This document shows positions 29,396 to 32,798 of a DNA stretch of 64,000 bases, piece by piece. The translations under genes were made by a program, and so were the position numbers. Below the pieces are notes generated by a model, which ran no database searches, was not told the origin of the DNA, and worked only from the letters and a program-made list of their open reading frames with translations. Each line of letters starts with the position of its first letter. Position 1 is the first letter of the stretch. The DNA is taken from positions 1,674,001 to 1,738,000 of the forward strand of contig NZ_CP011371.1 in the NCBI RefSeq assembly GCF_001017435.1, read 5' to 3'. The stretch comes from Caldimonas brevitalea (GTDB lineage: Bacteria > Pseudomonadota > Gammaproteobacteria > Burkholderiales > Burkholderiaceae_C).

Positions 29396-31321
29396 ATGAC
29401 GGGTAGTGACCACTCAGACGAAGACCTGCGGCAGCGCACCTTGCTGTCGATCCTCGACGACAAGGAGATGCGCTACGAACTGCAGCGCCGTGCCGCCGAC
29501 CACGAACTGGGCAGCCGCTGGGATGTCGACGCCGGCACACTCGCCTCGCTGCTCGAAGACCCGCGGGGCGCGGTGGCGTTCGAAAGCCGCCCGCTGTCAG
29601 AGGCCATCGTGCGTGCGGTGGCGCGGCCGGTGCTGATGATCGAGAACCACAAGGTCACCTTGCCGAACTCCGACGTGCTGTCACGTCGCATCGGCAAGTT
29701 CGCCCCGGTGTTCGAGCCGACCCTGCGCTCGGTCGGCCGGGTCGAACTGGTCGGCCACCCTGCACTGGAATGGGTGGGCACGGGCTGGATGGTCGAAGAG
29801 GGTATCGTGGTGACCAACCGACACGTCGCGTCGGAGTTTGCCCGCCGCGACGCGACCGGCAAAGGGTATGTCTTCATTCGCAGCCAGCTCGGCACCGAAG
29901 TGTTGCCCCGCATCGATTTCCATGAAGAGTATCGCTCGGTGGTGGCGGCCGAGTTCCGCATCGAGCGGGTGCTCTACATCGCACCGCACAGCGAAACCGC
30001 GCCGGACGTCGCCTTCTTGAAAGTGGTGCCGGGCGAGACCGCGGGGCTGCCGACACCGATCGAGCCGGTGGCCGACCTGCGCAAGCATCTGCGTGAGCGG
30101 CGCTTCATGGCGGTGGTCGGCTACCCAGCGCGCGACAGCCGCAGCGACTCGCGGCTGATGGATCGCATCTTCGGCGATGTCTACGACGTCAAGCGCTTCT
30201 CTCCCGGCGAGGTGATGACGGTCCACAAAGACAACTGGTTCTTCGAGCACGACGCGACGACGCTGGGCGGCAACTCCGGCAGTGTCATCCTCGACCTGCA
30301 GACGGGCAAGGCGCTCGGCCTGCATTACGCCGGCGCCCATCGCAAGGCGAATTTCGCCGTGCGCATCGACACCGTGCTCGAGATGCTGCACATCGCGAAA
30401 GGGCGCACCACGGTGGGCGGCACCTTGGCCGGTGTCGAATGGCAGGAGAAGACCCGACCGGTCGACAGCTACACGGCGACCGGCTACGACGAGCGCTTTC
30501 TCGGTGTGCGCGTGCCCCTGCCCAAGCCCGGGCGCGCCGCCGACCTGCTGCCCGTCAACGAGGAGAAGGACGCCTGGCGGCTCGACTACACGCACTTCAG
30601 CGTGCGCATGAGCGCCTCGCGCCGCCTGCCCCTGCTGACAGCGGTCAACATCGACGGCAGCGAACGTCGCAAGCTGTCGCGCAAGGGGCAGGTGTGGTTC
30701 TTCGACCCCCGCATCGAGCGCGAGCAGCAGGTCGGCAAGGAGTTCTACGGACCGAGCGGCTTCGACCGCGGCCACATGGTGCGCCGCGAAGACCCGGTCT
30801 GGGGTACGCCCGAGGAGGCGGCCCGCGCCAACGAAGACACCTTCCACTACACCAATGCCGCACCTCAGCTGCCAGGCCTCAACCAGCGCGAATGGCTGGA
30901 GCTGGAGGACTACGTGCTGGACAACGCCGACGCGCTCGACCTCAAGGTCAGCGTGTTCACCGGCCCGGTGTTCGCCCCCGGCGATCCGGTGATGCACGAA
31001 GTGCAGGTGCCGCTGCGGTTCTGGAAGGTGGCGGTGCTGGTCGACGCCGGGAGCGGCGAGCTGAGTTGCGCAGCCTATTTGCTGTCGCAGGAGGACATGC
31101 TGGCCGAGGCCTTCCACTACGGCCGCTTCAAGACCTATCAGGTGCCGCTGACGCACCTGGAGGAGTTGACCGGCATCAACTTCGGCAAGGCCTTGCGGGA
31201 CGCCGATGGCTACACCGGGCGCGGTGGCCATGAGAGCGTGCCGAAGTGGTCCCCGGGGATCGAAATCCGGTGTCCTGAAGATGTCCAGTTCCCGCGGCGG
31301 GCCCGACGCAAGCGCCGATGA
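29396..31321 (+). CDS. Trypsin-like protease fused to a DNA/RNA non-specific endonuclease
   Basis: 641 residues with AGGAG six bases before the ATG. Residues 1-100 are an unrecognised, mostly helical region. Residues about 105-340 form a trypsin-fold protease with an intact triad: His143 (TNRHVA), Asp204 (APDVAFLK) and Ser294 (GGNSGS). Residues about 365-630 form a NUC1-type nuclease: DRGH at 457-460, then Asn487, Asn496 and Glu504, which match the Serratia nuclease spacing (N110, N119, E127). There is no signal peptide, so both act inside the cell. The stop overlaps the next ATG (31318-31321). Coupling to Kiwa-like genes suggests a defence effector; control of the nuclease by the protease is inference. 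Confidence 0.9.
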   Translation: MTGSDHSDEDLRQRTLLSILDDKEMRYELQRRAADHELGSRWDVDAGTLASLLEDPRGAVAFESRPLSEAIVRAVARPVLMIENHKVTLPNSDVLSRRIGKFAPVFEPTLRSVGRVELVGHPALEWVGTGWMVEEGIVVTNRHVASEFARRDATGKGYVFIRSQLGTEVLPRIDFHEEYRSVVAAEFRIERVLYIAPHSETAPDVAFLKVVPGETAGLPTPIEPVADLRKHLRERRFMAVVGYPARDSRSDSRLMDRIFGDVYDVKRFSPGEVMTVHKDNWFFEHDATTLGGNSGSVILDLQTGKALGLHYAGAHRKANFAVRIDTVLEMLHIAKGRTTVGGTLAGVEWQEKTRPVDSYTATGYDERFLGVRVPLPKPGRAADLLPVNEEKDAWRLDYTHFSVRMSASRRLPLLTAVNIDGSERRKLSRKGQVWFFDPRIEREQQVGKEFYGPSGFDRGHMVRREDPVWGTPEEAARANEDTFHYTNAAPQLPGLNQREWLELEDYVLDNADALDLKVSVFTGPVFAPGDPVMHEVQVPLRFWKVAVLVDAGSGELSCAAYLLSQEDMLAEAFHYGRFKTYQVPLTHLEELTGINFGKALRDADGYTGRGGHESVPKWSPGIEIRCPEDVQFPRRARRKRR

Positions 31322-31866
31322 AACTGCGCTTCTGGCCTTCGCTGCTGATTTTCGCGAGTTCGTACTTCCCGCTCGCGTTGGTCGTGATCATCAAGGATCT
31401 CGACCCGGGCACCTTCTGGCCTCAGCACCCGAAGATGGCGCTGGCCATCATCGTCAGCGCCCTGCTGTGCATGTTGGCGCTCTACGTCACCGTGCGCTCC
31501 ATCCCGCCCGGGTTGCCGGTGCTGGTCACACGGGTGAGCAACAAGTCGGGCGAGCTGGTCGCCTACACCTTGCCCTACATGATTTCGTTCTACCGCTTCG
31601 ACCTCGGCGACTGGCGCACCTTGTTGTGCCTGCTGTTGTTCCTGGGCATGATGTTTGCGCTGAGCTATCGGACCCGCAACATTCTCGTCAACCCGGTGCT
31701 GGGGTTGGTGGGCTACGGCCTCTACGACGTGCAGTTCAAGGAAGGCGCGCGCGACCGTCAAGGCTTGTTGCTGTCGCGGCAAGAGTTCCGCGTGGGCGAC
31801 CGTTGCCACGTGACGCGGCTGTCCAACTTCCTGTATTTCGTCAAGAAAGTCGAAGTCGACGAATGA
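31318..31866 (+). CDS. kwaA: KwaA-like membrane protein of a Kiwa anti-phage system
   Basis: 182 residues with four to five hydrophobic segments at about 7-25, 40-60, 78-95, 101-117 and 121-136, then a soluble C-terminal tail of about 45 residues. The stretches VTRVSNKSGELVAYTLPYMISFYRF and NILVNPVLGLVGYGLYDVQF resemble KwaA-type proteins. In described Kiwa systems KwaA is an inner-membrane protein that forms a complex with KwaB. It overlaps the upstream protease-nuclease gene and the downstream DUF4868 gene by four bases each. The assignment rests on topology, size and the KwaB partner rather than an alignment. Confidence 0.75.
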   Translation: MKLRFWPSLLIFASSYFPLALVVIIKDLDPGTFWPQHPKMALAIIVSALLCMLALYVTVRSIPPGLPVLVTRVSNKSGELVAYTLPYMISFYRFDLGDWRTLLCLLLFLGMMFALSYRTRNILVNPVLGLVGYGLYDVQFKEGARDRQGLLLSRQEFRVGDRCHVTRLSNFLYFVKKVEVDE

Positions 31867-32798
31867 AGGCCGAGCCGCTGCCCGCTGCCACGATGGCGCT
31901 GCACGACACCGATTGGTCGTCTGCCACCGCCTCGCTCTGGATCGTCAAACGCCGGCTGGTCGAGCGGCGTGCGCGCTACGACGTGCTGGGCGTCGACATC
32001 GACGAGAAGTTGCAGGAGCGGCTGCGCAGCGAATTGCGCGAGCTGGTGGCCCGCCCGGTGGCCCGCGAGCCCTATGAGTTCGTCACGGCAGACCAGGACG
32101 AGACCGTGCTGACACTCGAATGGGCCGAGACCGACTTTGCGGCCATCGAAGCGCGCATTGCCAAAGGCCTCGATGCGCCGCGCGCGAGATCTGTCGACGA
32201 CTTGCTCAATTCCTGGTGTTATGTGGTGCGGCTCGAGCACCGGGACCAGGTGGTCTACGGCGTCAAGAAGACGGCGGCCCAAAGCAGCACGCGGCGGGTC
32301 AGGGGGCTGCGCAACCTGCTCTGGGAAGGGCACATGCTGGTGGACCTCGACGAACGTTCCGTGTTCACGCTGGCCAGCGGTTTTGACTTCGTGGCCTACG
32401 ACGGCACGCTGTTGATCTACGACAAGCGGCAGTTCGAGAGCGCCTTGAACTTCCGGCAAGGCATGGAGAAGGTGCGCGACGCGGTGCTGCAGGAGTTCGT
32501 CGACGCCGGCATCTTCGTCGACGTGGCCCCGCTGCGCGAGGCGGTCGGCACCAATCTGCCCCGCTTGCGCCGCATGTCGGCCCTCGACCGCAGCGGCTAC
32601 TACCGCGACCGCCGCTTCATGGAGCGATTGCTCGCGCTCAATGAACAGGAGCAATGGGGCCTGCAGGTGCACGACGGCCGCATCGTCGTGACCGAGGACA
32701 ACGTCGACACGGTGCTGCTGTTGCTCAACAACGGCCGCTTGCGCTCGCCGGTCAACAACGAGACCTTCGATGCGCTGGTGAAAAAGAAGATCGAATGA
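31863..32798 (+). CDS. kwaB: KwaB-like DUF4868 protein of a Kiwa anti-phage system
   Basis: 311 residues from the ATG that overlaps the kwaA stop (31863-31866). The DUF4868 hallmark is the block DERSVFTLASGFDFVAYDGTLLIYDKRQFESALNF, with CYVVRLEHRDQVVYGVKKTAA before it. The protein is soluble and charged. Known KwaB proteins work with membrane KwaA and bind DNA. The frame is open upstream to 31206, but that stretch runs through kwaA in another frame and is rejected. Adjacency to a KwaA-like gene makes the Kiwa call firm at family level. Confidence 0.8.
   Translation: MKAEPLPAATMALHDTDWSSATASLWIVKRRLVERRARYDVLGVDIDEKLQERLRSELRELVARPVAREPYEFVTADQDETVLTLEWAETDFAAIEARIAKGLDAPRARSVDDLLNSWCYVVRLEHRDQVVYGVKKTAAQSSTRRVRGLRNLLWEGHMLVDLDERSVFTLASGFDFVAYDGTLLIYDKRQFESALNFRQGMEKVRDAVLQEFVDAGIFVDVAPLREAVGTNLPRLRRMSALDRSGYYRDRRFMERLLALNEQEQWGLQVHDGRIVVTEDNVDTVLLLLNNGRLRSPVNNETFDALVKKKIE

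What the first reader, a model, noticed from the sequence alone, without database searches (positions are those of the whole stretch)
29396..32798. Kiwa-like defence pair locked to an upstream protease-nuclease fusion
Three genes are joined by two ATGA overlaps: a trypsin-NUC1 fusion, a KwaA-like membrane protein and a KwaB-like DUF4868 protein. Described Kiwa systems have two genes, and I know of none with a protease-nuclease leader. A membrane sensor plus DUF4868 partner could release or activate the protease, which could then act on or unleash the nuclease. This would be a three-component defence system with a built-in proteolytic switch.
Basis: partly seen in the sequence, partly recalled or inferred. 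Interest (0 to 1): 0.9.

Follow-up and report, generated by a model that had tools for sequence, protein, structure and literature searches.

The report
Kiwa operon with protease-nuclease gene
A known two-gene bacterial antiviral system (Kiwa) is carried here, and in three related species, as one block with a third gene that joins a protein-cutting and a DNA-cutting enzyme, which may give Kiwa a switchable nuclease it is not known to have.

Summary
[quoted passage not shown] genes 2 and 3 are KwaA and KwaB of the Kiwa defence system; both ATGA overlaps are real. It is not a one-genome accident: the same three genes, in order, lie at the same chromosomal site in all four examined genomes with this kwaB at 74% identity or more. 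A fifth same-genus genome has that site empty: the neighbours abut and the three genes are missing as one block. All three are under purifying selection, catalytic residues intact. But this is one lineage: none of 12 two-domain fusions examined elsewhere has Kiwa nearby, and no other Kiwa locus examined has the fusion. The fusion is a described effector type (NucA-trypsin 'System 3'; LypC of LypABC); the new part is its attachment to Kiwa. Best reading: Kiwa is the membrane trigger of a LypC-like effector, paralleling the nuclease-protease pairs acquired by Hachiman, Avs, Lamassu and DRT. Functional coupling, and which domain kills, are inferred; in LypC the protease is essential and the nuclease dispensable. 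New variant of a known kind.

The parts
29396..31321 (+). Trypsin-like protease fused to NucA/Endonuclease_NS nuclease (641 aa); LypC / 'System 3' type, no transmembrane-grade segment
29417..29623 (+). N-terminal helical region (residues 8-76), family unknown
   Evidence: full-length model, about pLDDT 76-91 over most of it; folded alone only 63 mean pLDDT, so fold not assigned
29777..30322 (+). Protease domain (Trypsin_2, residues 128-309), glutamyl-endopeptidase/V8- and Deg-like fold; His143 29822-29824, Asp204 30005-30007, Ser294 30275-30277; His310 (30323-30325, just after) aligns with the GxHxxG histidine of glutamyl endopeptidases
30578..31201 (+). Endonuclease_NS domain (residues 395-602); DRGH with His460 30773-30775, Asn496 30881-30883, Glu504 30905-30907
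31318..31866 (+). kwaA, 182 aa membrane protein of Kiwa
   Evidence: PADLOC KwaA 7e-57; profile hit to solved KwaA 9o0i/9mrg; hydrophobic segments about 5-28, 36-66 and 96-119
31863..32798 (+). kwaB, 311 aa, KwaB (DUF4868) domain at residues 114-298
   Evidence: Pfam KwaB 1.3e-28; PADLOC 1.1e-126; solved KwaB 9mrx/9o0i
29220..32847 (+). Block between the upstream ABM gene and the downstream 84-aa gene; in same-genus genome G518 replaced by an intergenic stretch of under 100 bp (empty site)

Best explanation
The three genes are one heritable defence cassette: a divergent Kiwa pair (KwaA membrane sensor, KwaB DNA-binding partner) that has gained a cytosolic LypC-like effector, a V8/glutamyl-endopeptidase-type protease fused to a NucA nuclease. 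Most likely working (inferred): KwaA senses phage attachment or injection and gathers KwaB at the site; the assembly brings copies of the effector together or relieves its inhibition; the protease then cuts acidic sites, in its own linker and/or in other proteins, and the activated effector destroys DNA or kills the cell, adding a lethal or DNA-cutting step to a Kiwa that by itself only holds DNA. Shown here: gene identity, intact catalytic residues, co-inheritance, presence and absence as one block, purifying selection. Inferred: Kiwa as trigger, protease specificity, order of events, final target.
Against: All four genomes are one lineage at one site, so this is one acquisition, not repeated recruitment. 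0 of 12 two-domain fusions examined outside the clade lie by Kiwa (11; L065 by Pfam, flanks; four of the 12 seen with 1.5-kb flanks only), and of 46 Kiwa loci scanned only the clade's three have the fusion. The fusion can stand alone. LypC's nuclease is dispensable for lysis. No evidence of contact between fusion and Kiwa proteins; orientation of the two enzyme domains is uncertain (pTM 0.55).
Confidence: 0.48

Rival explanations
1. Co-transcribed but mechanistically independent defences: Kiwa works as usual, and the fusion is a self-contained suicide effector with its own trigger (for example a back-up when Kiwa is overcome). Shared promoter and inheritance only.
For: Fusions of this family occur alone: P. 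aeruginosa between ilvA and a LysR gene, Paracoccus. Other Kiwa pairs of this subfamily often sit inside or beside restriction-modification operons (20 of 34 loci have R-M-like genes within 7 kb, 16 of them clear and same-strand), so being packed with other defence genes is usual for them.
Against: The three genes come and go as one tight block with no other defence gene in it; no alternative LypA/LypB-like trigger found (no positive control).
Confidence: 0.37
2. The protease is the working part: as in LypC it triggers a downstream lytic or regulatory step, and the nuclease domain is structural or accessory. (A variant that can be true together with either reading above.)
For: LypC Ser296 is essential while H471/N505 are dispensable for lysis.
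Against: The nuclease active-site residues are invariant across the 25-sequence family alignment and in the four Kiwa-linked members, which argues for nuclease use.
Confidence: 0.25
3. Chance neighbours: a housekeeping protease-nuclease happens to lie before a Kiwa pair.
For: Only one lineage shows the link.
Against: Order kept in four species at 73-83% (kwaA up to 91%) protein identity, tight spacing, and an empty site lacking exactly these three genes.
Confidence: 0.06

Closest known systems
Kiwa (KwaA-KwaB)
   Same: kwaA and kwaB homologous, adjacent, overlapping in 4 of 4 genomes; membrane protein plus DUF4868/KwaB protein
   Different: Third gene upstream encoding a protease-nuclease; divergent subfamily below NCBIfam equivalog cut-offs. 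Known KwaB binds but does not cut DNA (review PMC12904381, passages; the primary Cell 2025 paper was not held)
LypC of the CARD-NLR-like LypABC system, Caulobacter crescentus (PMC13236601, passages)
   Same: Trypsin-like peptidase (1-335) then endonuclease (354-662) with linker; catalytic Ser at 296 (here 294)
   Different: Partners are a CARD-peptidase-ATPase and an NLR-like protein, not Kiwa; the LypC sequence itself was not compared here
'System 3' NucA-trypsin conflict systems (Kaur et al. 2020, PMC7159879, section 32 read whole, other passages)
   Same: Trypsin-like peptidase and Endonuclease_NS nuclease, sometimes fused
   Different: Described partners are further peptidases, EAD1 proteins and STAND NTPases; no Kiwa in the section read
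Nuclease-protease pairs in Hachiman, Avs, Lamassu, DRT (Tuck et al. 2025, PMC12799240, abstract, introduction and passages)
   Same: [quoted passage not shown] protease activates pro-nuclease
   Different: There the nuclease is MBL-fold in its own gene and the protease is fused to the core defence protein; here an Endonuclease_NS nuclease is fused to the protease and the core pair is separate; the word Kiwa does not occur in its main text

Membership tests
Kiwa | KwaA-family membrane protein | tested here: met
   PADLOC KwaA 7e-57; profile hit to solved KwaA 1.3e-10; NCBIfam equivalog only 58.1 of 100 bits
Kiwa | KwaB protein with the KwaB (DUF4868) domain | tested here: met
   Pfam 100.7 bits, cut-off 26.3; PADLOC 1.1e-126; NCBIfam equivalog 27.3 of 200 bits
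Kiwa | kwaA and kwaB adjacent in one operon | tested here: met
   ATGA overlap in 4 of 4 genomes
Kiwa | Membrane supercomplex, DNA binding, phage resistance | not testable with these tools
   needs experiment
NucA-trypsin 'System 3' / LypC type | Trypsin-like peptidase together with Endonuclease_NS nuclease, fused or in one operon | tested here: met
   Pfam, both domains in one protein; definition. Orthology to LypC itself not tested
CARD-NLR (LypABC) system | LypA-like peptidase-ATPase and LypB-like NLR partners | tested here: inconclusive
   not in the operon; LypA/LypB-like proteins of L081 as queries found 0 of 4 genomes each, no positive control
Tuck et al. nuclease-protease pair | MBL-fold nuclease in a separate gene, protease fused to the core defence protein | tested here: not met
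   nuclease is Endonuclease_NS and fused to the protease; KwaA and KwaB show no protease domain

The most novel reading that the evidence does not exclude
Kiwa can act as a membrane-borne trigger for a proteolytically switched nuclease: in this lineage KwaA-KwaB stands where STAND/CARD-NLR proteins stand in related systems, making a three-component immune system in which phage attachment at the envelope is turned into proteolysis and DNA destruction.
Probability: 0.33. Interest if true: 0.8.

Novelty: new variant of a known kind. Interest (0 to 1): 0.57.

Why it matters
Known Kiwa blocks phage DNA without cutting it. A Kiwa that carries a protease-nuclease would show that envelope sensing can feed a proteolytic switch, and would add Kiwa to the immune systems that have taken up nuclease-protease modules, with a different nuclease fold and a different gene layout. 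It makes a testable prediction: infection-dependent, KwaAB-dependent activation of the fusion.

Tried and rejected
Independent fusion-Kiwa pairs elsewhere: looked for by KwaA in genome contigs (22 loci), KwaA in 399 order and 299 family genomes (10 and 9 genomes with a match, own included), KwaB in 120 relatives and 350 class genomes (8 and 4, own included), the fusion in 399 order and 378 phylum genomes (46 and 51 with any match; only the fetched loci, at most 30 per search, were examined, and by my profiles few of them hold both domains), plasmids (143 records with a match to the fusion, 40 listed, 7 regions opened; 9 with a KwaB match, 4 opened), phages (KwaB, no match) and viral contigs (KwaB none; fusion 2 loci matching the protease region only at 32%). 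None outside the clade. The profile used for counting misses some two-domain proteins (L065 is one by Pfam), and the Hymenobacter hit (L085), split over several frames, was not counted.

The 84-aa gene after kwaB as a fourth member: rejected, it occurs in same-genus genomes G518, G690 and G677, none of which has a kwaB match or a fusion (G690 has two weak nuclease-only hits), and it is the right flank of the empty site. Target-site duplication at the block's ends: a 9-bp repeat in the window (14 of 500 shuffles as long), none in the three relatives. N-terminal domain identity (CARD-like?): folded alone it was low confidence, so no fold search was made. PDB comparison of the whole model covered mainly the protease; endonuclease G appears once among the 50 rows listed. 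A repeated Kiwa-trypsin link: one distant Kiwa (P. terrae pPT70) has a trypsin-like gene 144 bp after kwaB, but it is 1 case among 46 scanned loci apart from the clade's three (two further protease hits, in L105 and L160, lie kilobases away).

Full report
Observation. Three + strand genes at 29396-31321, 31318-31866 and 31863-32798 overlap by ATGA. Gene 1 carries Trypsin_2 and Endonuclease_NS domains, gene 3 a KwaB domain above Pfam's cut-off; PADLOC names gene 2 KwaA (7e-57) and gene 3 KwaB (1.1e-126). NCBIfam's KwaA and KwaB equivalog models hit below cut-off, so this is a divergent Kiwa subfamily. Profiles of the two families find the solved KwaA and KwaB chains in the PDB. The protease residues His143, Asp204, Ser294 and the nuclease residues Asp457, His460, Asn496, Glu504 are invariant in 25 aligned fusions. 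Gene 1 and kwaB have no transmembrane-grade segment; kwaA has three clear ones.

Conservation of the link. In 120 near relatives, 8 have a kwaB match; 4 of these are at 74% identity or more (the window's genome, G686, G687, G688), and all 4 have the fusion directly upstream, at 78-79% identity in the three others. A further same-genus genome, G607, has a distant kwaB (38%) and no fusion. By contig position G686 is Aquabacterium sp. A7-Y (L002) and G687 Caldimonas mangrovi S2-27 (L003); G688's contig length equals that listed for Eleftheria terrae, an inference. All four sit at one chromosomal place: both flanks align for L002 and L003, and the downstream PAS-kinase gene follows in all four. 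The kwaA-kwaB ATGA is kept in 4 of 4; the fusion-kwaA junction is an ATGA in 2, an 8-bp gap in 1 and a 56-bp gap in 1. dN/dS is 0.22-0.31 (fusion), 0.13-0.35 (kwaA), 0.23-0.33 (kwaB) over six pairs each, against 0.22-0.41 for the flanking kinase.

Empty site. The 84-aa gene after kwaB also occurs in three same-genus genomes that lack a kwaB match and the fusion (G690 has two weak nuclease-only hits). In one, G518, the upstream flank from window 24355 to 29215, ending with the ABM gene (28875-29219), is collinear with one unaligned stretch, and the 84-aa gene follows after under 100 bp; the three genes are missing together. G677 also lacks them, with more rearranged flanks, and in G690 only the small gene matches by blastn. 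So the three genes behave as one unit of gain or loss at this site. No convincing duplication marks its ends.

Limits of the link. This is one clade: a tree of 32 fusions puts the Kiwa-linked ones on one branch (100/99; one of the five so labelled, P0008, was not verified). Of two-domain fusions examined outside the clade, 11 by my profiles plus L065 by Pfam, none is beside Kiwa; four of these (L127, L145-L147) were seen with 1.5-kb flanks only. Of 46 Kiwa loci scanned besides the window's own (L087 and L107 are the same place; flanks vary, some are cut short), only the three of this clade have the fusion. So recruitment was not repeated in what I could see.

Kiwa in its own subfamily. 20 of 34 Kiwa loci have R-M-like genes within 7 kb. 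16 of these are clear and same-strand; L019 and L075 are weak matches and L023 and L074 lie on the other strand. The full order hsdM-hsdS-kwaA-kwaB-hsdR is seen in 6 (L014, L016, L018, L071-L073), and kwaA-kwaB followed by a methylase and a ResIII helicase in another 6 (L004-L007, L011, L107); a sample was confirmed by Pfam. So this Kiwa subfamily tends to travel with DNA-attacking enzymes; here the companion is the fusion instead.

Mechanism. Published Kiwa: KwaA tetramers in the membrane, KwaB dimers bind DNA without cutting (review PMC12904381, passages; the primary paper was not held). Best reading: Kiwa senses entry and triggers the LypC-like effector by assembly or proximity; the protease then acts on itself or on other proteins, and DNA or the cell is destroyed. 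Shown: identities, residues, co-inheritance, block gain or loss, selection. Inferred: everything after sensing. The main rival, two independent defences in one operon, is nearly as likely because the fusion family has stand-alone members. That the nuclease is the final effector is uncertain given LypC.

Novelty. Tuck et al. 2025 show MBL nuclease-trypsin pairs taken up by Hachiman, Avs, Lamassu and DRT; the word Kiwa does not occur in that main text. I found no print record of Kiwa with a protease-nuclease gene, but these were searches of CC-licensed PMC papers with capped, partly off-topic listings, so this is weak. Parts known, combination apparently new: new variant of a known kind.

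Noticed in passing
L004-L007, L011, L013, L014, L016, L018, L020-L022, L071-L073, L107: Kiwa pairs of this subfamily sit inside type I R-M operons (hsdM-hsdS-kwaA-kwaB-hsdR complete in 6) or before a methylase/ResIII pair (6 loci); 20 of 34 loci have R-M-like genes within 7 kb, these 16 clearly.
   Followed up: partly
L162:3729-6168 (Paraburkholderia terrae plasmid pPT70): A distant Kiwa pair is followed 144 bp downstream by a stand-alone Trypsin_2 protease, with an Eco57I-like methylase upstream: possibly a second Kiwa-protease pairing.
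   Followed up: partly
L081:962-7872 (Paraburkholderia phenoliruptrix plasmid pSYMBR3459): Trypsin protein, AAA_16 (STAND-like) protein and trypsin-nuclease fusion in a row, sized like LypA, LypB and LypC of Caulobacter.
   Followed up: partly
L079:5968-7896: P. aeruginosa carries a 48% identical stand-alone fusion gene between ilvA and a LysR regulator; that protein cluster has 1388 member sequences.
   Followed up: no
L020:697-1983: A reverse-transcriptase (RVT_1) gene lies directly before kwaA in a Zetaproteobacteria MAG.
   Followed up: no
L011:9086-9961 and L007:9165-10001: Bro-N and KilA-N domain genes directly before kwaA in two Kiwa loci.
   Followed up: no
window 32848-33102: 84-aa gene without Pfam match, conserved after kwaB in the four clade genomes and kept in three same-genus genomes that have neither kwaB match nor fusion.
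   Followed up: yes
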